Shown here: in pieces, positions 5,678-16,336 of the stretch
How the letters are laid out: each line of letters opens with the position of its first letter
Position numbering within the stretch: the first letter of the stretch is position 1
DNA from: Paraflavitalea soli
GTDB lineage: Bacteria > Bacteroidota > Bacteroidia > Chitinophagales > Chitinophagaceae
NCBI RefSeq assembly: GCF_003555545.1
Contig: NZ_CP032157.1
Location: 3,848,546 to 3,912,545, forward strand
Direction of reading: 5' to 3'
Length of the DNA stretch: 64,000 nucleotides
Program-made: the position numbers and the translations under genes
The notes under the pieces: model-generated
Seen by the model: the letters and a program-made list of their open reading frames with translations, nothing else
Database searches by the model: none
Told to the model about the DNA's origin: nothing

Positions 5678-8600
5678 TTGAAAAGTAATGTCATTTGCAT
5701 AACGATTGTCCTGTTCATGGCCTGTACCTGTAAATTGTATGGGCAGGGGTATTATTTCAGGCATTACCAGGTAGAACAAGGTCTTTCTCACAATACGGTC
5801 AATTGTATTACGCAGGATAAGGAAGGATTTATGTGGTTTGGTACAAAAGATGGCATCAACCGGTTTGATGGCATTAGTTTCAAAGTCTTCCGTCGCAATC
5901 CTTCGGACAGTACCAGCCTGGGCAATAATTTCGTATACAGTCTCCACGTGGATCGAAAGGGTATTTTATGGGTAGGTACCCGCCAGGGGTTGTACCAGTA
6001 CAATGCCAGCACAGAGTGTTTCCGCTTTATAAAAAGTACCGGCTGGACAGATGTGCGCGACATCACTTCTGATAAGCATGGCAACCTATGGTTTATACTG
6101 GGGTTAAGGTTATACCGGTACAACGAAGCAAAAGACAGCTTGCCGGTACTGGTGGATTATGATCAAAAAGAATTATCTGCTATCACCATTACAGCCGACG
6201 GGCAGTTATGGGTATCCAGCGTTGATGGCCGGCTGCTGCAGTATGACGCCGCCACCGGACGCTTTTCCGGTTATGATCTTTTTAATGAATCAGTTACTCC
6301 TCCTTCTAAATGGATAGGAAAAATTTATGCTACCGGCAAAGGGCATATCCTGGCAGCCACTTCCCATCAGGGTATCAAGCTTTTCGATATAGCCACGCAT
6401 CAATACAAAGACATCCTTACGCAAAACGCTGATCATTCGGTGGTATATGGACGTGATCTCTTCTACTATGGCGGTGATGAGTATTGGATGGCTACGGAGT
6501 CGGGCGTATATATTTACAATATCAAGGACGGTAGTCTGAAGAACCTGCGCAAACATTTCAATGATCCCTACTCCCTGGCCGACAATGCGGTGTATGCGCT
6601 TTGCAGGGATAAGGAAGGCGGTATGTGGGTGGGCACTTTCTTTGGAGGCGTCAATTATTATCCCCGTCAATACACTTCCTTTCAGAAATATTTCCCCGGC
6701 AGTACTTACAACAATATCTGCGGCAATGCGGTGCGGGAAATGTGTGAGGATCAGTACGGTAATCTTTGGATCGGTACAGAGGACGGCGGATTGAATAAGC
6801 TGGAGCAGTCTACAGGAAAGATATCACAATACCTGCCTGGCGGTACCCCTTCTACTATCTCTTACACCAATATCCATGGCCTGGCAGCCATCGGCAACGA
6901 ATTATGGATAGGCACCTTTGAACATGGTGTCAATGTAATGGATATTCCCAGCGGGAAGATCATACGGCATTACTCCAAACGGCGCAGCGCCCCTTCCACT
7001 TCTCCGGCCAGTTTTGTGATCACTTTTTACCAGACAAGGGCCGGTGAGTTACTGGCCGGAACACCTTTGGGGTTGTACCGGTATGACCGGCAAACCGACG
7101 ATTTTGTGGCTATACAGGAAAACATCTTCGTAGCCAGTATCCTGGAAGATCATGCAGGTACTATCTGGTTGTCGACAGGCGGAAAAGGTTTGTTCTACTA
7201 CAACCCCACCACCGGTGAGCACGGCAATCTCCTGCCCGATCCTGGCAACAGCAATAGCCTCCCCAGCGGCCTGATCAATAATGTGTTTGAAGACAGTTAT
7301 CATAATTTATGGGTAGCCACAGAAGATGGCGGGCTTTGCCAGTATAATCATACCACCAAATCGATGAAGCGGTATACCACCAAAAACGGTTTGCCCAGCG
7401 ACTTTGTATTCATGGTACAGGAAGATAGCCATCACAATATATGGATAAGTACTACCCGGGGACTTTGTTGTCTTAATCCGGTTACAGGAAGTGTCCAGGT
7501 ATATACCAAGAGTAATGGATTGCTGAGTGACCAGTTTAATTATCATTCGGCTTATAAGGACAAGAAAGGGCGCATGTATTTCGGCAGTGTGAAAGGGCTC
7601 ATCAGTTTTAACCCCGATGAGTTTACGCAAAACAGTTTTATGCCACCGGTATATATTACGGGCATCCAGGTAAACAACAAGGAGCTTGGTATTAAAGCGC
7701 AGGGATCTTCGCTCGCCAACTCTGTTATACAAACACAACGTATTACGCTACCTTATACGGCATCTACTTTCAGCATTGACTTCGCCGCACTCAGCTATAC
7801 CGCACCGGAAAGTACGGAATACATGTATAAAATGGAAGGACTGGATAAAGACTGGACTATTCTGAAAGCAAACCGGAAGGTATATTTTACCGGACTGGCT
7901 GCCGGGACCTACCGGTTCATTGTAAAAGCAGCGAATAGTACCGGTAAATGGAACAGTGAGCCGGCCCAATTACAGATCCGTATCCTTCCGCCTTTCTGGG
8001 CCAGTAGCTGGGCTTATTCTCTCTACGCTGTCTTGTTGATAGCGATCATCCTGTATATTATCCGCAATTACCACCGTCGAACGGAAGAGAAGAATAAACG
8101 TAAAATGGAATTGCTGGAACATGAAAAAGAAAAAGAATTGTACCAGGCCAAAATAGAATTCTTTACCAATGTGGCGCATGAGATCAAAACACCGCTCACC
8201 CTGATAAAAGGGCCCCTGGAGAAAGTGATCAAAAAATCAGATCAACTGCCGGAATTGCGCAACAGTTTGCAGATCATGGAACGTAATACCGACCGGCTCA
8301 TAGACCTCACCAATCAATTATTGGATTTCAGGCAAACAGAGGCAAAAGGCTTCAGCCTTAACTTTACGCCCATCAATATATCGGAACTACTGGAGGAGAC
8401 ATATGTCAATTTCAAACCACTGGCCGAACAACGTAATTTATTGTTCACCATGGACCTGCCGGCACAGGCATTGCATACTATGGCGGACCAGGATGCATTG
8501 AACAAGATCTTCAGCAATGTATTCAGCAATGCCATCAAGTATGCGGGGAGCCAGGTGCAGGTACAATTATTGCCTGTTGAAGAGGGTGCCTCTTTGTTTA

Positions 8601-8884
8601 CGATTGAAATAGCCAATGATGGCGACCTGATCCCTTATGATATGAAAGAAAAGATATTTGAGCCCTTTTTCCGGTTAAAGCGTATGGAGAAGCAAAAAGG
8701 AACAGGTATTGGTCTTGCCCTGGCCCGCTCACTAACGCATCTGCACAAGGGTGACCTGTATTTAAAGGAAACCCACAATGGCCTGAATACATTTGTGATC
8801 AGTTTGCCATTACCAATGGCCAGTACTGGCGCCAGCACAAGCCGTGAACAAAATGATAATACGATCCAATCGGTAAATCCATAA
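5678..8884 (+). CDS. Reg_prop/Y_Y_Y periplasmic sensor histidine kinase (kinase half of a split HTCS)
   Basis: A membrane sensor kinase of 1068 residues. After a signal peptide (cleavage before Gln in KLYGQG) come two seven-bladed propellers made of reg_prop repeats (for example GFMWFGTKDGINRFDG and GILWVGTRQGLYQYN) to about residue 690, a Y_Y_Y domain (about 695-775), one membrane helix (about 778-797), a HisKA domain with phospho-acceptor His834 (NVAHEIKTPLTL) and an HATPase with the GTGIGLALA G-box. A normal hybrid two-component system continues into receiver and HTH domains in the same chain; here a stop at 8882 ends the protein and those domains form the next gene. The start is TTG, because no in-frame ATG precedes the signal peptide. 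It probably senses an oligosaccharide and controls the divergent susCD. Confidence 0.93.
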   Translation: MKSNVICITIVLFMACTCKLYGQGYYFRHYQVEQGLSHNTVNCITQDKEGFMWFGTKDGINRFDGISFKVFRRNPSDSTSLGNNFVYSLHVDRKGILWVGTRQGLYQYNASTECFRFIKSTGWTDVRDITSDKHGNLWFILGLRLYRYNEAKDSLPVLVDYDQKELSAITITADGQLWVSSVDGRLLQYDAATGRFSGYDLFNESVTPPSKWIGKIYATGKGHILAATSHQGIKLFDIATHQYKDILTQNADHSVVYGRDLFYYGGDEYWMATESGVYIYNIKDGSLKNLRKHFNDPYSLADNAVYALCRDKEGGMWVGTFFGGVNYYPRQYTSFQKYFPGSTYNNICGNAVREMCEDQYGNLWIGTEDGGLNKLEQSTGKISQYLPGGTPSTISYTNIHGLAAIGNELWIGTFEHGVNVMDIPSGKIIRHYSKRRSAPSTSPASFVITFYQTRAGELLAGTPLGLYRYDRQTDDFVAIQENIFVASILEDHAGTIWLSTGGKGLFYYNPTTGEHGNLLPDPGNSNSLPSGLINNVFEDSYHNLWVATEDGGLCQYNHTTKSMKRYTTKNGLPSDFVFMVQEDSHHNIWISTTRGLCCLNPVTGSVQVYTKSNGLLSDQFNYHSAYKDKKGRMYFGSVKGLISFNPDEFTQNSFMPPVYITGIQVNNKELGIKAQGSSLANSVIQTQRITLPYTASTFSIDFAALSYTAPESTEYMYKMEGLDKDWTILKANRKVYFTGLAAGTYRFIVKAANSTGKWNSEPAQLQIRILPPFWASSWAYSLYAVLLIAIILYIIRNYHRRTEEKNKRKMELLEHEKEKELYQAKIEFFTNVAHEIKTPLTLIKGPLEKVIKKSDQLPELRNSLQIMERNTDRLIDLTNQLLDFRQTEAKGFSLNFTPINISELLEETYVNFKPLAEQRNLLFTMDLPAQALHTMADQDALNKIFSNVFSNAIKYAGSQVQVQLLPVEEGASLFTIEIANDGDLIPYDMKEKIFEPFFRLKRMEKQKGTGIGLALARSLTHLHKGDLYLKETHNGLNTFVISLPLPMASTGASTSREQNDNTIQSVNP

Positions 8885-8895
8885 ACCTGCACGCT

Positions 8896-9660
8896 ATGAC
8901 ACCTACTATATTACTGGTTGATGACAATGAAGAGATCATAGAATTCCTGGCGGATGAACTGGGAGGCCAATACAGGGTGTTGAAAGCTGCTGATGGTGAT
9001 GAAGCATTGTCCATATTGGGCAGAGAGGCTGTTCACCTGGTGGTCAGTGATGTGATGATGCCGGTGCTGGATGGCTTTGAATTGTGCCGGCTCATCAAAA
9101 CGAATTTCGAGTTCAGTCATATACCTGTCATCCTGCTTACAGCCAAGAATACCCTTCAATCGAAGATCGAAGGACTTAAGCTGGGCGCTGATGCTTATAT
9201 AGAGAAGCCCTTCTCGCCGGAACACCTGCAGGTACAGATCGCCAACCTGCTCACCAACCGCCATAAAATACGGGAATACTTTGCCAACTCCCCCCTCGTG
9301 CACATTAAGAGTATGGCTTATTCCACAGCCGATGAACAATTCCTGGAAACACTGAATGAAACCATCCGGCAGCACCTGGAAGATACGGAACTGGATGTGG
9401 AAAAGCTGGCCAGGATCATGACGATGAGCCGCCCTACCTTATACCGCAAGATCAAGGCTATCTCCAACCTTACGCCCAATGAACTGATCAACATTACCCG
9501 GCTCAAAAAAGCGGCTGAAATGCTGGCAGCAGGACAATACAAGGTATACGAGGTGGCTGACATGGTAGGCTATAACTCGCAGAATAACTTCGGCCGCAAC
9601 TTCCTCAAGCAATTTGGCATTACTCCTACCGAATACATGAATATGAAAAAGCCCGAATAG
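8896..9660 (+). CDS. Response regulator with AraC-type HTH (output half of the split HTCS)
   Basis: A DNA-binding response regulator of 254 residues. The receiver domain (1-120) has acidic DDNE at 9-12, phospho-acceptor Asp52 (SDVMMP), Thr in LLTAK and Lys in IEKPF. The C-terminal part (about 150-250) is an AraC-type HTH with the second helix region ADMVGYNSQNNFGRNF and a closing FGITPTEYM. It starts 11 bp after the kinase stop in a different reading frame; the frame is closed by a stop at 8857-8859, so it is a true separate start. It is the expected partner of the kinase and the candidate binder of the repeat at 5555-5588. Confidence 0.93.
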   Translation: MTPTILLVDDNEEIIEFLADELGGQYRVLKAADGDEALSILGREAVHLVVSDVMMPVLDGFELCRLIKTNFEFSHIPVILLTAKNTLQSKIEGLKLGADAYIEKPFSPEHLQVQIANLLTNRHKIREYFANSPLVHIKSMAYSTADEQFLETLNETIRQHLEDTELDVEKLARIMTMSRPTLYRKIKAISNLTPNELINITRLKKAAEMLAAGQYKVYEVADMVGYNSQNNFGRNFLKQFGITPTEYMNMKKPE

Positions 9661-9670
9661 CCTAAATAAA

Positions 9671-9701
9671 AAAGCTGTGTACCATTACAGTACACAGCTT
9701 T
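9671..9701. terminator. Hairpin terminator between convergent genes
   Basis: AAGCTGTGTAC (9672-9682) and GTACACAGCTT (9690-9700) form a perfect 11-bp stem, 12 with flanking A-T, around a 7-nt loop. A-rich sequence precedes it and T-rich sequence follows, so it can work for the response regulator gene and for the gene ending at 9729. Confidence 0.8.
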
Positions 9702-9728: not shown

Positions 9729-12509
9729 TTACTCTTTAAGTATCCTGATCGTTTGACCGTTCCTTAATTTCAGGGTATACACACCCGCATTGTACTGATC
9801 CATATGGATAGTGGTTACGCTTTGGGTTATTTGTATACGTTGTACTTCCCTGCCTGTACCATCGTACAGGTGAGCGGTGGTATTCAGCAATTCTTTATCC
9901 GTAACATTCAGGACAGCTGCATTCTTAACAGGGTTGGGGTATAAGGTCACCCATCCCTGGCGGTCACTTCTCAGCAACAGCGACTTGCTGTAGGTAGTGC
10001 GTCCGTTGATATCTGTTTGTTTTATGCGGTAGGTGCCTTTTCCTATCAAGGCCTGGGCCTCCTGGAAGCTGTATTCGTTTTCACCATTGCCTTTGGAGAG
10101 GATGTCTGCCACAGCTACAAACGGTTGTCCATCCAACGATTTTTCGATGGTGTAAGACGCTACCTGTTGTTCCTGTACTTTCCAGCTGATATTCGCCTTG
10201 CCTTGTGCATTCAGCGATCCATTCACGTAGAGCCAGGTAACAGGTAACACGGCTGTATATGTTTGTAAGAAGAAGCCACTGAAACCAACTGTAGTAAAGC
10301 TGATCTCCCAACGGCTAAGGGTAGCATTCCACACAACGTCTGCATCCACGGGATCGATCAATGCGGAAGTTCCTGTATACGTGCCTGGCAGGCCGGTAGC
10401 CGGGTTATTGCTGGCTCCTGCAAACTTACTAAAGCGCACGTTGGCCTTGCCTGCAGCATCCCCGGGACCTGTTGGCAGGTTGGAAGTACTGCCCGGCGCC
10501 GCATTAAAGGCAGTAAATTCCGCCTGTGTGAAATACAGGGTTATTTTGGCGGTGGCAGTAGCCGCTCCTGATGCCGGCATCAATTCATAATGCCTTTGAA
10601 CATATGGTTTACCGGTAACAGCCGGATAGACCGGAACACTCGGTTCAAACCATACCCGTGCCGCCAATGTACCTGCTACAGGGTTGCCTGGTGTAGGAAC
10701 CACCGTAGCGATCAGGTTACAGCTGGCGTCATAGATATTGTTGTTGGTAGCAGAAACCACAAATGTCGTATTGGTGGTATTGGCAGATGCCAGTGGGCCA
10801 GCCGGCGTGATCGTATAATTCTTAGTTACGGTATTGCCAATAGCATCTGTTACCGTTACACTGAGGGTAGCGCCGGGGCAAAGACCTGTAGCTGTATTGG
10901 TAGTGCTTGTACTACCAGTCCATACATATGTATATGGCGTAACTCCACCCGATGGTGTAACCGTGGCTGTACCATTACACCCTACCAGACAGGTGGGTGG
11001 TGTTTGCGATTGGGTAGCTGTAAGCGCAGCAGGATCAATATAGCGGGCTAAAAATACATCGGACGCCGTGCTTGCAAGCGGTAAATCAGGTAATGGTGCA
11101 AATGTAATGGTATTGCCATAACTACCGGAGACCCATATACTTCCCGTAGCACCGGCCGCTACAGAAAACCCTACATTGCTGATGGTGTTTCCTGCAATGC
11201 CAGCCCCATGCCCCAGCAACTGGCCATTGCCATCAGCAGCAGCAACACGGGCTAGGAAGATATCATCGGCCGTATTATTATTGGTAATAGTGAATGCAGG
11301 GAGCGTGGTGGGAATGTCTAATACACCCCGAAAAGTGCCTACCACATAAATAGAACCTGCTCCATTGGTGGTGATGTCATAAGCCCGGTCGGCGCCTCCA
11401 GTACTGCCACCCGCTGATTTGGACCAGACAAAGTCGTTAGTAGCAGGATTGTATCGTGCATACCAGGCATCATTATTCCCTTCATTGGTCAGTGCCGGAT
11501 TGCTGCCGAATTGGATGCTGGGGCTGGCAAAATAACCTGCCGCCATAATATCTTGGGTAGAGGGATCATACACAAGCGCCACACCATCATCGAGTCCCGT
11601 ACTGCCTACTCCTATGGCATTGGTAAAAGCACCATTGGCGGCATTAATTTTTAAAAAGCAAATATCCAGGGAGCCTGCATTGTTGATGGTAAAGGAAGAT
11701 ACAGGTGATGTAGTAGCATAGGTAGCGGCGGCGGCATTATAACTACCCACCAGTACTATCTCATTAGTGGCAGCTACATAAGCAATACCGCTGCCCTGGG
11801 GATTATCTGTACTATTCAATGCTCCCCCGGTACTTACCCAGTTAAAGGCGCCTGACGTTGGATTCAACTGGGCTACAAAAAGATCGTTAGACGTGCCTCC
11901 ATTGGCCGTGCGGGCGCCCAATGCGCCAAAAACAGCACCGGTAGGAAAATTTCCCGATGCATATAAATTGCCCGAAGCATCCAGGCAGAGGCCCTGCACA
12001 TTTTCTGTGCCGGTACCATCAATGGTGTTGACCCACAACCCGGCGCCGGTAGCAGCGTTCAATTTGGCAATATAACCGGTAATACCCGTTTTGGTTACAG
12101 TTGGCAAAGGAGCGATCGTTATATCTCCATTAAAAAATCCGCCCACATACACCGAGGTGCCGGCTGCATCAACGGTGATGGAAGCAGCTACATCATTGCC
12201 TGCAGCGGTAGAGGCAAAACCAATCGACCACTGACAAACGCCGGCCGTGTTAAATTTAGCCACAAAGCCTTCGTTGGCGCCGGTAGAAGGCAAAGGGCCT
12301 GTACCAAAATTGATCGATCCTACATAAACGCCGGCCACATACACATTGCCAGCAGCATCGGTGGCGGTAGCCACCCCCCTTTCCTGTCCGGCTGTGGAGG
12401 TTCCCCAACCATTCCGGAAACCCCATTGCTGCGCAAGCAGGGTGCCAGGTAAATTCAGTAGAACAATCATCAGTAATAACGGAAATACATTGAGTATTTT
12501 ACTTCTCAT
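9729..12509 (-). CDS. T9SS-secreted beta-propeller (SBBP-like) protein with SprB-type repeat
   Basis: A 926-residue exported protein. The signal peptide ends LLA before Gln-Gln (about residue 27). Residues about 30-500 hold propeller-like repeats of the SBBP type (DAAGNVYVAGVY, DASGNLYASGNF, NGAGSIYVVGTF), each about 50-70 residues. A SprB-like unit follows (about 515-575: CNGTATVTPSGGVTPYTYVW), then a region ending in a type A T9SS sorting domain (YPNPVKNAAVLNV to GQTIRILKE). It should cross the outer membrane by T9SS and sit on the surface or in the medium. It is the last gene of a tight minus-strand series with the formyltransferase (28 bp away), the PBP-like protein and three tail-collar proteins. 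Its job there is unknown. Confidence 0.88.
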   Translation of the reverse strand: MRSKILNVFPLLLMIVLLNLPGTLLAQQWGFRNGWGTSTAGQERGVATATDAAGNVYVAGVYVGSINFGTGPLPSTGANEGFVAKFNTAGVCQWSIGFASTAAGNDVAASITVDAAGTSVYVGGFFNGDITIAPLPTVTKTGITGYIAKLNAATGAGLWVNTIDGTGTENVQGLCLDASGNLYASGNFPTGAVFGALGARTANGGTSNDLFVAQLNPTSGAFNWVSTGGALNSTDNPQGSGIAYVAATNEIVLVGSYNAAAATYATTSPVSSFTINNAGSLDICFLKINAANGAFTNAIGVGSTGLDDGVALVYDPSTQDIMAAGYFASPSIQFGSNPALTNEGNNDAWYARYNPATNDFVWSKSAGGSTGGADRAYDITTNGAGSIYVVGTFRGVLDIPTTLPAFTITNNNTADDIFLARVAAADGNGQLLGHGAGIAGNTISNVGFSVAAGATGSIWVSGSYGNTITFAPLPDLPLASTASDVFLARYIDPAALTATQSQTPPTCLVGCNGTATVTPSGGVTPYTYVWTGSTSTTNTATGLCPGATLSVTVTDAIGNTVTKNYTITPAGPLASANTTNTTFVVSATNNNIYDASCNLIATVVPTPGNPVAGTLAARVWFEPSVPVYPAVTGKPYVQRHYELMPASGAATATAKITLYFTQAEFTAFNAAPGSTSNLPTGPGDAAGKANVRFSKFAGASNNPATGLPGTYTGTSALIDPVDADVVWNATLSRWEISFTTVGFSGFFLQTYTAVLPVTWLYVNGSLNAQGKANISWKVQEQQVASYTIEKSLDGQPFVAVADILSKGNGENEYSFQEAQALIGKGTYRIKQTDINGRTTYSKSLLLRSDRQGWVTLYPNPVKNAAVLNVTDKELLNTTAHLYDGTGREVQRIQITQSVTTIHMDQYNAGVYTLKLRNGQTIRILKE

Positions 12510-12537
12510 TTGGATAGTTTTACATGTTATCTTTTAT

Positions 12538-13458
12538 TCAGGAAAGGCAATGTCCTTCCTGTAGTCCAAAGGCAGCGAGTTTATGGCCGGGATAAAAGCC
12601 TTCTTCACAATACACCACTTCGGCCCTGATGGCATGGCCATCTTTACAGGCAATGGTCAATCCCTCCCGGTCATTAATGGAAATCACTGTGCCGGGTACT
12701 TTACCATTCCCCCTTTGCTGAAGGACCGTTGCATGGCTGATGCCAAACAACCAGTTGTTCCACCGCGTAGCGGCGCCTTTATTCCAGGGATTACAGGCAT
12801 TGACCAATGCATTGACTTCACCGGCATCCATCACGGCCCAATTGATAAAAAGATCAGCGGGTGATGGCCGCGCATACCACCTCGCCTTTGAATGATCCTG
12901 CTCTTTCTTTTGCAGGGTGCCGGTAAGCAATCCATTCAGCAGCATACCGGTCACGTGTACGCCGGCATAAGCCAGCTGGGTATAGAACAATCCAAAGTTC
13001 ATATCAGGGGCCAGGGGTACTGGCTGTTGCAGCAATACGGGGCCCGCATCATAGGTCTCGTTCATTTCATGTACCGTGACGGCGCCGGCCGTTTCGCGGT
13101 TGCGGATCATCCAGAACAAGGGATTGGCACCTCTCCACTCTGGTAAGGGTGCATAATGAAAATTGATAAAGCCAAACCGTGGCAGGCGTATCACTTCGGC
13201 AGGGATCAGGAAAGGAAATGTTTTGACCAGCACCACATCAGGTTTGTACTGTACTATCCATCGGTGCAACTCCTCTCCGATAGTTTTTTTATGAAACTCC
13301 TGCAGGGATACGTTTACCTGTTTGCAACGGTCTTCAATAAGCGTGCGGATAGCATGATTTCCAAAAGGCACTCCTACGGTAACTACCAGGCCGGTTGCCA
13401 ACAACTGGTCGAGGGCTGGCAATGCAATTCTGTCATTACAAAGTATAGCTATACGCAT
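12538..13458 (-). CDS. Methionyl-tRNA formyltransferase-like formyltransferase
   Basis: A cytoplasmic formyl transferase of 306 residues. The catalytic triad of 10-formyltetrahydrofolate-dependent enzymes is present: Asn99 and His101 in INFHYAPLPEWRG and Asp137 in TYDAGPVLLQ. A C-terminal domain like that of Fmt follows (about 205-300). The N-terminus lacks the usual Fmt start (FMGT/FAVP) and reads ILCNDRIALPALD, so the substrate may differ from Met-tRNA. It is 3 bp after the PBP-like gene and 28 bp before the T9SS protein, inside the tail-collar operon, not beside def as a housekeeping fmt often is. The enzyme class is clear; the acceptor is unknown. Confidence 0.85.
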   Translation of the reverse strand: MRIAILCNDRIALPALDQLLATGLVVTVGVPFGNHAIRTLIEDRCKQVNVSLQEFHKKTIGEELHRWIVQYKPDVVLVKTFPFLIPAEVIRLPRFGFINFHYAPLPEWRGANPLFWMIRNRETAGAVTVHEMNETYDAGPVLLQQPVPLAPDMNFGLFYTQLAYAGVHVTGMLLNGLLTGTLQKKEQDHSKARWYARPSPADLFINWAVMDAGEVNALVNACNPWNKGAATRWNNWLFGISHATVLQQRGNGKVPGTVISINDREGLTIACKDGHAIRAEVVYCEEGFYPGHKLAAFGLQEGHCLS

Positions 13459-13461
13459 AGG

Positions 13462-14583
13462 TCAGATACATAAATAATTATTTTTCCAGCCCGACCCTTG
13501 TTCGGGTTTATCATCCAGTACTGCTTCATGTTCGGATGCCGATACAGGGATCATTTCCAGTATATTCAAGGCGCATTTACCCTGATCCCCGGCAACAATC
13601 ACTCCTTTATACAAAGGCGCGTAGGTTTGGCGGGTTGCAGGATGAATAGTGACCGTGCCCCTTGGGCTATCATAAGAAAAGCCATTCAGGGCGCTTGCAC
13701 CTTCCTTCCCGGCGTGAAGGCTAAGGAGACCTGCTTCCCAGCCCAGCAGGTGGAAAATATTAGCCTGTTTGTTTTTCTCGCGGCGAATGACTTGCATAAA
13801 TACATCCTGTTCCTCTCCCTGCAGGGTCGTACTCCAGGGCACAATAGCATGGAATGTGCCGCCCGGAAAATCACATTGCGCCAGTAATATTTCTTCTGCC
13901 ATAAAGGGAGAACAATAAAAAGGCAATGCAGTAGCTGAGGGATCTCTTTCTTTCAGTGCTTTGATAAACAGGTTGGCCAGGTAGCTACTGAAGCAGGCAG
14001 CCACAGACTGTGCGCCGGAATGCTGCAGCAACTGCATATAGTTATCTATATTGAATTCGGTCTCTTTATAGCCGCTCACATAATTGCCGCATACCGTACC
14101 GCCTGCGGCCGCCAGACCACGGGTATAACCCCAGGGGCCACGATAACCACCATCATAAAACGAAGTAGCCATCAGCACCTTCCGGTTTTGCTCACCAGCC
14201 ATATAACCCGCTATACGGCAGGCATGAATGCCCTGCAGCGAAATATGATAGCAATGGGGAGGTGCGGCTACTTCCGGTAGCTGCATGCCGGGATCCAAAA
14301 AAATAAATGGTTTACCGGCTATACCAGCCAGTTTGTACAGCGGTTCTGCATTGCCAGCATTGCAATAAACGATCATAACATCTACATTTTCCTGCAACAC
14401 CAGCTTTTCGGCCCTGGCATAATTGAGGTCATGATCCTCACCAAACCCAATATTTTCTGTAATGAACCGGGCATTATCCTGCCCGGCCCTTTTGAGACTA
14501 TAACGTAATCCATCCAGGATATCAAAACCCAGGGAAGGGTAATCGGTAGACCGGGGTAATAAAAGTCCTGCTACGAGGGACAT
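13462..14583 (-). CDS. Periplasmic-binding-protein-like protein without signal peptide
   Basis: A 373-residue protein with the two-lobed type 1 PBP pattern seen in Leu/Ile/Val-type binding proteins: VAGLLLPRSTDYPSLG at the start, ENVDVMIVYCNAGN, KPFIFLDPG, and a second lobe after VLMATSFYDGGYRGPWG. It begins directly with the first beta strand (MSLVAGLLLP), with no signal peptide or lipobox, so it should stay in the cytoplasm. No permease or ATPase gene is near. It sits between the tail-collar genes (33 bp) and the formyltransferase (3 bp), so it is likely an intracellular ligand sensor or binding partner in that operon. The fold is inferred from sequence pattern only. Confidence 0.7.
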   Translation of the reverse strand: MSLVAGLLLPRSTDYPSLGFDILDGLRYSLKRAGQDNARFITENIGFGEDHDLNYARAEKLVLQENVDVMIVYCNAGNAEPLYKLAGIAGKPFIFLDPGMQLPEVAAPPHCYHISLQGIHACRIAGYMAGEQNRKVLMATSFYDGGYRGPWGYTRGLAAAGGTVCGNYVSGYKETEFNIDNYMQLLQHSGAQSVAACFSSYLANLFIKALKERDPSATALPFYCSPFMAEEILLAQCDFPGGTFHAIVPWSTTLQGEEQDVFMQVIRREKNKQANIFHLLGWEAGLLSLHAGKEGASALNGFSYDSPRGTVTIHPATRQTYAPLYKGVIVAGDQGKCALNILEMIPVSASEHEAVLDDKPEQGSGWKNNYLCI

Positions 14584-14616
14584 ACAATCGGTTTAAAAAT
14601 GAATAATCAACCCTCC

Positions 14617-15162
14617 TTAATTCCGCGCAGGGAATACACCCTGTAAACAGATCAGGTAATTAAGGGCTAATACAGGATGCAGGGTAGAAAAAGGTATTGG
14701 TCCACCAGCGTTTAAACCCGTTGTCAATGTGCCGGGATAAGGTTTCATGTTAACGGAACCACCAGGGCCAAAGAGTTGTTCGCCGGCAGCCGGTGAAGCA
14801 TATACACCGTTGGCAGGTGTAGTAGCATCTGCCGTAGTATTTGCACCGGGTACAATTTTAATGGTAGCAGTATGCCCGTGTGAAGGCATGGTGGCCACTG
14901 TCATGGTAGTGGTTTCACTTCCGGCCAATTCACCCAGGGAATACTGAGATAAACCCGGCCCCTGGCCAGCACCTACAACAGTCCGGCCACGCAGATCAGG
15001 TAATGCAAAAGTAGTTTGACCATTGCCGCCGTAAGTAGTACCTAACAGGGAAAACAACGCCGTATTTTGAGAAATAGCCATTATCTGACCCTGGCAAAGG
15101 GCCCAGCCCCGGGGGGCAAAATTGCCGGCAAAGGCGGTTACATAAGCAAGAACTCCTTCCAT
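14617..15162 (-). CDS. Phage tail collar domain protein (MdpB-like), copy 3 of 3
   Basis: 181 residues. The N-terminus has the tail-collar signature FAPRGWALCQGQIMAIS and GTTYGGNGQTTFALPDLRGR, then GAGQGPGLSQYSLGELAG, a variable middle with ETTTMTVATMPSHGH, and the shared end NYLICLQGVFPARN. No signal peptide or membrane helix. This family (microcystin-dependent protein type, COG4675) is related to short tail-fibre collars but is common on chromosomes without other phage genes; its function there is not established. It is closest to the PBP-like gene, 33 bp away, and belongs to one transcription unit with its two paralogues. Confidence 0.9.
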   Translation of the reverse strand: MEGVLAYVTAFAGNFAPRGWALCQGQIMAISQNTALFSLLGTTYGGNGQTTFALPDLRGRTVVGAGQGPGLSQYSLGELAGSETTTMTVATMPSHGHTATIKIVPGANTTADATTPANGVYASPAAGEQLFGPGGSVNMKPYPGTLTTGLNAGGPIPFSTLHPVLALNYLICLQGVFPARN

Positions 15163-15208
15163 AATATATGCGTTTAATAATGTGGTAGTTAATAATTGAG
15201 TAGTACGA

Positions 15209-15760
15209 TCAATTGCGGGATGGGAAAATACCTTCCAGGGCTATAATGTAATTCATCGCCAGGAATGGTGAAATAATGGGCGTCGGATTAGTTTGGCCTG
15301 TAGGCGCTGTGGTGGCAGTACAGGTAGCTGTTCCCATCACCGATCCAGATGAAGCGCTATTATAGGCATTAATGGATAAAGCAGCCGGCACCGCATTGGT
15401 AGGATCGGCCACTGTGCCTACAGCGCTATTGGCGGTTGGTTTACCGGTTGCGCTCACAAAAGTATGGGTATGAGACGCCAATTGCGTAGTCAATATGGTT
15501 ACATTTTCTGTACCTGCTGCCTGTCCAATAATATAAGTGGAAAGACCCGGCGCCTGACCGGCATGAACGGCTACGCGGCTGCGCAGATCGGGCAAGGCAA
15601 AAGTAACCTGGCCATCTCCTCCGTAGGTGGTACCTATCAGGGCAAAGAGCGCCGTATATTCTGATATAGACATTAATTGACCCTGGCAAAAAGCCCAACC
15701 CCGTGGGGCAAAATTGCCGGCAAAAATGGTAACATTCGCTAAGTATTGATCCACAAACAT
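15209..15760 (-). CDS. Phage tail collar domain protein (MdpB-like), copy 2 of 3
   Basis: 183 residues, colinear with its neighbours: FAPRGWAFCQGQLMSIS, GTTYGGDGQVTFALPDLRSR, GQAPGLSTYIIGQAAG, and the end NYIIALEGIFPSRN. The middle (about 100-150) is Ala/Ser/Thr-rich and unlike the other copies, and it lacks the Asp-Leu-Arg-Gly pattern (DLRSR instead). No signal peptide. The genes before and after lie 33 and 46 bp away on the same strand. Divergent middles on a constant frame suggest three different tips on one scaffold, but that is inference. Confidence 0.9.
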   Translation of the reverse strand: MFVDQYLANVTIFAGNFAPRGWAFCQGQLMSISEYTALFALIGTTYGGDGQVTFALPDLRSRVAVHAGQAPGLSTYIIGQAAGTENVTILTTQLASHTHTFVSATGKPTANSAVGTVADPTNAVPAALSINAYNSASSGSVMGTATCTATTAPTGQTNPTPIISPFLAMNYIIALEGIFPSRN

Positions 15761-15793
15761 GATAATAAGCTTTAAGGATGATAGATAGAGAGT

Positions 15794-16336
15794 TTAATTA
15801 CGGCTGGGGAAAATGCCCTGCAAACAAATGATATGATTGATAACCAGGTAGGGCATCAATACAGGTATTGGCTGACCGCCACCGGCCGGATTGATCGTAC
15901 CACTATAAGCAGGCTGCAGCATATTCACATTGGCGGTAGGCGCAGGCGCATACGCGTTATCGTAACCGGCCGGAAAATTGTATTCCGCACTACCATCTCC
16001 ACCCGGCAGGTTATCAGCCTGCAAATAAAAATTAGTATTCCCCACATGCTGGTGCGGTGGTACGTTGTTGGCATTGAGTGTAATGGTTTCTGTACCTGTT
16101 TTTTGTCCCAGGGTATAAGGCTGCAGGCCGGGCCCGTTACCCTGACTTACAATAGAACGGCCCCGCAGGTCGGGCAATGCGAAAGTAGTAGTACCATTCC
16201 CACCATAGGTTGTGCCCAACAGGGAGAATAAGGCCTGGTTTTGAGCAATCGCCAATATCTGCCCATTGCAAAGCGCCCAGTATTTGGGTGCAAAGTCGGC
16301 GGCAAAGCAGGTAACAACAGCCATAGTTCCTTGCAT
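15794..16336 (-). CDS. Phage tail collar domain protein (MdpB-like), copy 1 of 3
   Basis: 180 residues and the first gene of the six-gene operon. Signatures: FAPKYWALCNGQILAIA, GTTYGGNGTTTFALPDLRGR, GNGPGLQPYTLGQKTG, ITLNANNVPPHQHVGN and the end NHIICLQGIFPSRN. The PPHQH stretch occupies the place of PSHGH in copy 3, a conserved His pair of the family. No signal peptide. A 636-bp spacer without genes precedes it and probably carries the operon's control region; one exact -7 element on this strand is seen at 16731-16738. Confidence 0.9.
   Translation of the reverse strand: MQGTMAVVTCFAADFAPKYWALCNGQILAIAQNQALFSLLGTTYGGNGTTTFALPDLRGRSIVSQGNGPGLQPYTLGQKTGTETITLNANNVPPHQHVGNTNFYLQADNLPGGDGSAEYNFPAGYDNAYAPAPTANVNMLQPAYSGTINPAGGGQPIPVLMPYLVINHIICLQGIFPSRN

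What the first reader, a model, noticed from the sequence alone, without database searches (positions are those of the whole stretch)
9729..16336. Six-gene operon joining three tail-collar proteins, a cytoplasmic PBP-like protein, a formyltransferase and a T9SS-secreted propeller
All six genes share one strand with spacers of 33, 46, 33, 3 and 28 bp, so they should be one transcript. The three collar proteins share ends but have different middles and no signal peptides. The formyltransferase keeps its catalytic triad (Asn99, His101, Asp137). The last gene is exported by T9SS. Tail-collar (MdpB-like) proteins occur in many chromosomes with no known role. A formyl-modifying enzyme, a ligand-binding fold and a secreted protein beside them suggest that they form a modified surface or extracellular fibre, or a sensing device. 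I do not know a described system with this content.
Basis: partly seen in the sequence, partly recalled or inferred. Interest (0 to 1): 0.75.

Follow-up and report, generated by a model that had tools for sequence, protein, structure and literature searches.

The report
Non-phage tail-fibre triplet gene module
Many unrelated bacteria carry the same small gene set: three different tail-fibre-tip proteins that probably assemble into one tip, an enzyme that probably caps an amino group on them, often a binding protein, and a large surface protein; its function has never been tested.

Summary
The six-gene run is real and not a chance neighbourhood. In 147 relatives, PBP-like homologues (25 of 25 genomes) and close formyltransferase homologues (23 of 23) lie near collar genes. 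Versions of the module recur across Bacteroidota and in Chloroflexota, Deinococcota, Pseudomonadota and Bacillota. In many loci a GNAT acetyltransferase, related to protein N-terminal acetyltransferases, replaces the formyltransferase; none of 112 loci has both. Collars at the same place in the triplet are orthologous, as in a virophage collar heterotrimer shown biochemically (PMC12724248). Collars of GNAT loci mostly begin Met-Ala/Ser, those of formyltransferase loci Met-Asp/Glu (14 of 16 in later GNAT loci). My reading: a chromosomal, non-virion, heterotrimeric fibre tip, N-acylated and displayed with a large secreted protein. Tested here: anatomy, linkage, replacement. Inferred: trimer, N-terminal target, display. 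Export route and ligand are unknown, and the N-terminal correlation is not significant after phylogenetic correction (6 for, 1 against, 4 ties).

The parts
15794..16336 (-). collar protein 1 (180 aa), starts Met-Gln
   Evidence: PF07484 E 3.8e-26; best hits in other loci are position-1 collars
15209..15760 (-). collar protein 2 (183 aa), starts Met-Phe
   Evidence: PF07484 E 1.1e-27; best hits are position-2 collars
14617..15162 (-). collar protein 3 (181 aa), starts Met-Glu; HxH motif at His95, His97
   Evidence: PF07484 E 3.1e-28; HxH invariant in the 38 sequences of A4; matches T4 gp12 (1ocy, E 7.5e-05)
13462..14583 (-). PBP-like protein (373 aa) without signal peptide, conserved C-terminal GWxNxYLC tail
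   Evidence: PF13458 E 2.9e-25; AF2 model pLDDT 93.4, tail low; W366, N368, Y370, C372 invariant in the 26 sequences of A3
12538..13458 (-). formyltransferase (306 aa), Fmt/ArnA-like, catalytic N99, H101, D137
   Evidence: PF00551 and PF02911; nearest NCBIfam fmt, below its cut-off; triad invariant in 45 of 45
9729..12509 (-). T9SS-secreted repeat protein (926 aa), SprB repeat, Por_Secre_tail
   Evidence: PF13573 E 1.7e-07, PF18962 E 5.7e-08, over cut-off; T9SS-type proteins are enriched at this place: 23 of 65 genes near against 10 of 484 elsewhere
9671..9701 (-). terminator-like hairpin behind the last gene
   Evidence: 14-pair stem with T-rich tail; consensus match only

Best explanation
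A chromosomal, non-virion module builds a fibre tip of the phage short-tail-fibre (collar) type. The three collar chains are made together and most likely assemble 1:1:1 as one intertwined heterotrimer. A dedicated acyltransferase caps an amine of the collar chains in the cytoplasm, most likely the N-terminal alpha-amine: the Fmt-like enzyme would put a formyl group on the retained Met of Met-Glu/Asp/Gln/Phe starts, and a RimI-like GNAT, in other loci, an acetyl group on Ala/Ser exposed by Met removal. The PBP-like protein binds a conserved ligand or partner, perhaps as an assembly or export companion. The fibre is then displayed or released with the large secreted repeat protein and probably binds glycans or other cells. 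Shown here: gene content, linkage, replacement of one acyltransferase by the other, orthology by position. Inferred: trimer, acylated site, role of the PBP, display, binding.
For: Linkage: PBP-like homologues in 25 of 147 genomes, all 25 within 8 kb of a collar (23 within 3 kb); the 23 best formyltransferase matches (E up to 8.7e-35) all within 4 kb; of the 12 next rows that I compared, one is a fragment beside a collar and 11 are not near any. In the genome-contig scan with the PBP alignment all 39 loci hold a collar. Position orthology: 43 changes on the tree against mean 100.8, minimum 88, when places are shuffled within 68 triplets. Precedent: three consecutive PF07484 proteins of virophage DSLV2 co-purify as a heterotrimer and group by position (PMC12724248: abstract and sections 20 and 28 read). 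Replacement: COLx3-PBP-GNAT in Deinococcus and in L173 against COLx3-PBP-FT here; 0 of 112 loci have both; triplet loci 25 FT, 7 GNAT, 7 neither of 39, single or paired loci 7, 2, 30 of 39 (Fisher p 2.8e-7). Substrate: the enzymes' nearest named relatives act on N-terminal alpha-amines: fmt, rimI, N-terminal acetyltransferases and RimI among the best PDB hits. Second residue: GNAT loci 30 of 37 small (A, S, G, T), FT loci 10 of 126; prediction noted before fetching held in 14 of 16 collars of GNAT loci against 2 of 9 of loci with neither. Large protein downstream enriched: 21 of 65 against 38 of 484 genes (family), 19 of 64 against 20 of 431 (phylum).
Against: No experiment. After phylogenetic correction the N-terminal correlation is inconclusive: one supported independent pair; 11 pairs on all branches, 6 for, 1 against, 4 ties, p 0.125. 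Collars with neither enzyme and no PBP also start Met-Asp/Glu (18 of 23), so that start may simply be the default; 10 of 126 FT-locus collars start Met-Ser/Thr. Loci with PBP but neither acyltransferase exist, so acylation is not obligatory. Collars lack signal peptides and the export route is unknown. A downstream protein of 700 aa or more was found in only 21 of 40 and 18 of 39 loci. The single-chain collar model is poor (pLDDT 69), and no trimer was modelled. Collar presence is weakly associated with a contractile-system marker. An ArnA-like sugar formyltransferase is an equally close relative of the enzyme.
Confidence: 0.5

Rival explanations
1. The acyltransferase modifies an amino sugar or other small amine that decorates the fibre or the secreted protein, not the collar N-terminus; sugar N-formyl- and N-acetyltransferases are known to replace each other on amino sugars (recalled).
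For: The formyltransferase is as close to ArnA (2bln, E 9e-22) as to Fmt.
Against: No glycosyltransferase or sugar-nucleotide gene recurred among the gene clusters that I identified (not all neighbours were scanned); the GNAT is nearest to protein N-terminal acetyltransferases; it does not explain the second-residue pattern.
Confidence: 0.2
2. The collars are tail fibres of a contractile injection system or tailocin coded elsewhere in the genome.
For: The own genome has a gp25 homologue at C1:1971723 and a weak sheath match below the cut-off nearby; collars and gp25 co-occur in 26 of 147 genomes, size-stratified p 0.016.
Against: 9 of 25 genomes with the collar-PBP pair have no gp25 match; the own collars are about 1.9 Mb away from it; no sheath, tube or baseplate gene was recognised next to the collars in the maps, though those neighbours were not scanned one by one.
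Confidence: 0.1
3. A prophage remnant with no present function.
For: The Collar domain is a phage domain; col3 has remote matches in 358 phage records, all under 60% identity.
Against: The PBP-like protein has no match in 50,697 phage records; the same gene order is kept over phyla with intact frames and an invariant catalytic triad; triplets group by position.
Confidence: 0.03
4. A ligand-sensing or regulatory device (AmiC-like binding protein) that acts inside the cell.
For: The PBP-like protein is without signal peptide and resembles AmiC among others (1pea, TM 0.69, rank 12).
Against: The closest folds are ordinary substrate-binding proteins (4eyg, 4evq); the PBPs of two Chloroflexota loci, a Deinococcus and L173 carry Tat-like signals, hence act outside; no conserved regulator in the operon.
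Confidence: 0.12

Closest known systems
T4 gp12 short tail fibre / gp37 tip (phage collar receptor-binding tips)
   Same: Collar domain; HxH pair (invariant in the 38 sequences of A4); sequence match to 1ocy. That HxH binds metal in an intertwined trimer is recalled.
   Different: Not beside virion genes; three paralogues instead of one homotrimer gene; linked to acyltransferase, PBP and a large secreted protein.
Tripartite tail of virophage DSLV2 (PMC12724248)
   Same: Three consecutive PF07484 genes, grouping by position; there shown to form a 1:1:1 heterotrimer that binds Synechococcus LPS.
   Different: A virophage tail; the sections read mention no acyltransferase, PBP or secreted adhesin.
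Fmt (methionyl-tRNA formyltransferase) and ArnA formyltransferase domain
   Same: Two-domain fold and Asn-His-Asp triad.
   Different: 120.1 bits against the fmt cut-off of 201.5; linked to collars in all 23 close family matches.
RimI and other protein N-terminal acetyltransferases (GNAT)
   Same: Nearest NCBIfam and several of the best PDB hits of the collar-linked GNAT; Met-Ala/Ser starts of neighbouring collars.
   Different: 41 bits against the rimI cut-off of 86.4; linked to collars instead of ribosome-modification genes.
SprB/SprF-type T9SS type B adhesins (PMC9143113, abstract read)
   Same: One related locus pairs COLx3-PBP with a CHU_C giant protein and PorP_SprF.
   Different: The window protein has a type A tail (Por_Secre_tail) and no PorP_SprF gene beside it.

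Membership tests
Phage tail fibre (collar) tip | Collar domain PF07484 | tested here: met
   all three above cut-off
Phage tail fibre (collar) tip | HxH metal-site motif | tested here: met
   invariant in the 38 sequences of A4, window collars included; metal binding not tested
Phage tail fibre (collar) tip | part of a virion or prophage gene set | tested here: not met
   neighbours are chromosomal; PBP absent from 50,697 phage records
Tripartite collar heterotrimer (DSLV2 type) | three consecutive collar genes whose members group by position | tested here: met
   43 changes against 88 or more in 300 shuffles
Tripartite collar heterotrimer (DSLV2 type) | 1:1:1 heterotrimer | not testable with these tools
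   no complex prediction on hand; single-chain model pLDDT 69
Contractile injection system fibre | occurs with contractile genes | tested here: not met
   9 of 25 collar-PBP genomes lack gp25; weak association remains, p 0.016
Methionyl-tRNA formyltransferase (fmt equivalog) | score over the curated cut-off | tested here: not met
   120.1 against 201.5 bits
Formyltransferase superfamily | Asn-His-Asp catalytic triad | tested here: met
   45 of 45
ABC-transporter substrate-binding protein | Peripla_BP_6 fold | tested here: met
   PF13458; 4eyg TM 0.78
ABC-transporter substrate-binding protein | export signal | tested here: not met
   none in the window protein (read by eye); Tat-like in L116, L117, L125, L173
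ABC-transporter substrate-binding protein | permease and ATPase genes beside it | tested here: inconclusive
   none among the six genes; not searched for in all loci
T9SS cargo (last gene) | signal peptide and sorting tail | tested here: met
   PF18962 and TIGR04183 over cut-off; Sec-like start read by eye

The most novel reading that the evidence does not exclude
Bacteria have a protein-directed N-terminal formyltransferase, evolved from the Fmt/ArnA family, that puts the formyl group back on the retained Met of each collar chain; in other lineages a RimI-like GNAT does the equivalent on Ala/Ser, and the second residue of the collars has co-evolved with the enzyme. The PBP-like protein, related to amide binders, recognises the acylated ends and carries the folded trimer, by Tat hitchhiking where it has a Tat signal, to be displayed with a giant adhesin. 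In some loci hydroxylation and sulfation of the tip are added.
Probability: 0.22. Interest if true: 0.9.

Novelty: categorically new. Interest (0 to 1): 0.72.

Why it matters
Collar ('microcystin-dependent', MdpB-like) proteins sit in a great many chromosomes with no role, and are expressed in soils (COG4675 assigned to Pedobacter, Ramlibacter and Acidithrix in a soil metaproteome, PMC5579227, passages seen). The work here turns them into a defined module with a testable chemistry: a heterotrimer encoded by three genes, capped by one of two unrelated acyltransferases, beside a binding protein and a large secreted protein. If right, it would be a widespread domesticated fibre tip outside phages and contractile systems, and the first protein-directed N-formyltransferase that I know of (recalled, not searched exhaustively). 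'Categorically new' refers to the module as a whole; its folds are known. The literature searches listed in the report found no description of it, and the library lacks most subscription papers and all bioRxiv preprints.

Tried and rejected
Phage or tailocin fibre, prophage remnant: see rivals. PADLOC: no hit for the six proteins, so no known defence family. PHROGs: tail-protein hits for the collars and one formyltransferase family for FT; none for PBP or the last protein.

The alignment A1 was too diverse for a collection scan; I used the narrower A2, which biases that set towards close PBPs. The treekit independent-pairs test found only one supported pair, so I wrote a greedy one on all branches; leaving out L078, whose GNAT lies 5 kb away, would have made it look better, but that is after the fact and I did not do it. 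The collar AF2 model was poor and was not searched. The Tat-signal enrichment near collars (16 of 376 against 9 of 888 genes, p 0.0005) rests on a loose pattern and is offered as a lead only. Literature searches.

Rows dropped before counts: 11 loci that repeat the same genomes or lack a clean PBP call (among them L099), L052 and L171 (no collar recognised by my profile), L070 (collar over 300 aa), the seven hydroxylase loci L118-L124, and collars without a readable start; one start in L183 annotated too short, one collar each in L181 and L180 without a readable start, and one short fragment in L186. Collar-selected loci were fetched for 38 of 49 family genomes (own included) and 38 of 80 phylum genomes; plasmid stretches for 18 of 71 matching records. 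My simple ORF caller missed collars on some GC-rich plasmids (L129, part of L128).
Full report
WHAT IS THERE. The six genes are as described. The window lies in a single-contig 8.44 Mb genome; its same-genus relative G085 has a contig of the same length as Paraflavitalea sp. CAU 1676, so the organism is probably a Paraflavitalea-like Chitinophagaceae (inference). The genome has no other Collar hit.

IT IS A UNIT. In 147 genomes of the family, PBP-like homologues occur in 25, all 25 within 8 kb of a collar and 23 within 3 kb; collars occur in 49; the 23 closest formyltransferase matches (E up to 8.7e-35) all lie within 4 kb of a collar, while of the 12 next rows that I compared 11 do not and one is a fragment at a collar locus. 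The genome-level association holds within genome-size strata. Gene maps of 40 fetched family places show COLx3-PBP-FT-secreted protein again and again, and variants: single COL-PBP-giant protein-PorP/SprF-like, PBP-FT-COLx3, and six triplets in a row followed by FT in one genome (L077). A scan of 84,980 species' genomes with a PBP alignment gave 39 loci, all with a collar; 37 are Bacteroidota and two are Chloroflexota.

OUTSIDE THE FAMILY. In a phylum-wide sample 80 of 296 genomes have collars; 40 places from 38 of these were mapped. Of 71 plasmid records with a match to collar 3 I read 18: a GNAT is at the collars in 12 (nine annotated, three recognised by profile), FT in one (Spirosoma), neither in five. 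In three Deinococcus records the order is large protein-COLx3-PBP-GNAT (in the last-named but one a collar is annotated as a short fragment), and in L173 ASPH-ZINC-COLx3-PBP-GNAT: the GNAT stands exactly where FT stands here. G346 has both kinds at two separate triplets (L154, L155).

REPLACEMENT. None of 112 loci has both FT and this GNAT. In the collar-selected part (own, family, phylum) triplet loci are 25 FT, 7 GNAT, 7 neither of 39; single or paired loci 7, 2, 30 of 39 (Fisher p 2.8e-7). The enzyme thus goes with triplets. The GNAT's nearest named families are rimI (below its cut-off) and, in the PDB, N-terminal acetyltransferases and RimI among others; FT's are fmt (below its cut-off) and ArnA.

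THE TRIPLET. Collars of one locus are about 46% identical to each other, yet for 160 of 204 the best match elsewhere holds the same place; the tree needs 43 changes of place against a mean of 100.8 (minimum 88) with places shuffled within triplets. This is what PMC12724248 reports for the virophage DSLV2 trio, whose heterotrimer was purified (abstract, sections 20 and 28 read). HxH is invariant in 38 aligned collars, and 247 of 263 collars end in [FY]P plus two or three residues.

THE N-TERMINAL PATTERN. FT loci: 126 readable collars, second residue D, E, N or Q in 101, large hydrophobic in 15, small in 10. GNAT loci: 37, small in 30, D in 7. PBP but neither enzyme: 53, small in 27 (11 of them Pro, a residue not seen at that place in the 163 collars of FT and GNAT loci), D, E, N or Q in 24. 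None of the three: 23, small in 2, D, E, N or Q in 18. By the methionine-aminopeptidase rule (recalled) small residues expose a new N-terminus and the others keep Met. I noted the prediction before fetching further plasmid loci: GNAT loci 14 of 16 small, loci with neither enzyme 2 of 9. Against it: relatedness. Only one supported independent pair exists; on all branches 6 pairs go the predicted way, 1 the other, 4 tie (p 0.125). The Met-Asp/Glu start is also the default of collars without any enzyme. So the alpha-amine is my best guess for the target, not a result.

THE PBP-LIKE PROTEIN. A confident fold (pLDDT 93.4) of the branched-chain/aromatic-acid binding-protein class (4eyg TM 0.78; AmiC 1pea 0.69). 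Its C-terminal WxNxYxC residues are invariant in 26 aligned sequences but the tail is of low model confidence, which suggests a docking peptide. It has no signal in the loci with FT; in L116, L117, L125 and L173 it has a Tat-like signal. An export companion is therefore possible but unproven.

OTHER MODIFYING ENZYMES. Related loci hold an Asp/Asn hydroxylase (17 of 112), a sulfotransferase-like gene (12), a HEAGH-containing protein (12) and a PKHD-type oxygenase (6), with hydroxylase-sulfotransferase and hydroxylase-HEAGH fusions. By genome, PF05118 is in 22 of 147, 20 of these with collars, and in 9 of the 22 within about 7 kb of a collar; of 15 genomes matching the sulfotransferase, the 13 strong ones all have collars, one weak one has and one broken one has not. 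Size-stratified permutation: 0 of 20,000 for the hydroxylase and p 0.00035 for the sulfotransferase. The own genome has hydroxylase, APS kinase and sulfotransferase together about 2.6 Mb away (L118 8548-10767). Whether these act on collars is unknown.

LARGE PROTEIN. Proteins of 700 aa or more are enriched within four genes downstream (21 of 65 against 38 of 484 genes in the family, 19 of 64 against 20 of 431 in the phylum), but only 21 of 40 and 18 of 39 loci have one by this count.

PRIOR WORK. Searches listed no paper that describes this module. COG4675 proteins were detected in a soil metaproteome (PMC5579227, passages).

ODDS. Module real: near certain. Heterotrimer: about 0.8. Acylation of the collars: about 0.6; of their N-termini: about 0.45. 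Surface display with the large protein: about 0.55. Together about 0.5 for the statement in its main lines.

Noticed in passing
L118:8548-10767 (own genome, C1 about 6.4775-6.4798 Mb): Asp/Asn hydroxylase, APS kinase and sulfotransferase genes together, a possible hydroxylation and sulfation set; the two outer genes go with collar genomes in the family sample. L119, L120 and L122 also have a gene of similar size at hand, not scanned.
   Followed up: partly
L077 (G136:C4:484000-503900): Eighteen collar genes in a row, spaced as six triplets, ending with one formyltransferase gene.
   Followed up: no
L177:6732-9323 and L078:8784-9200: Lasso-peptide B2-like genes (in L177 also PqqD and an HprK-related-kinase-like gene) beside collar triplets, hinting at another modification branch.
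   Followed up: partly
cluster c6, e.g. L107:6312-7118 (-): A Tat-signal protein resembling 5'-nucleotidases, next to the collars and mostly divergent; RR motif in 16 of 16 members.
   Followed up: partly
L042:7517-8047, L062:10440-10919, L064:12788-13309, L045:7148-7645: A family of about 160-176 aa with an HEAGH motif and no Pfam match (L042 and L064 members scanned), in 12 of 112 collar loci, fused to the hydroxylase in L081.
   Followed up: partly
window 5678-9660: Large two-component sensor and a response regulator with DNA-binding part, convergent with the operon; similar genes lie at the same place in the same-genus locus L039. Possible regulators.
   Followed up: no
G000:C1:1966819-1971992 (L188): gp25 homologue and a weak sheath match: a contractile system far from the collars.
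   Followed up: partly
window 13462-13500 (PBP C-terminus): Conserved C-terminal WxNxYxC tail of low model confidence, a candidate docking peptide.
   Followed up: partly
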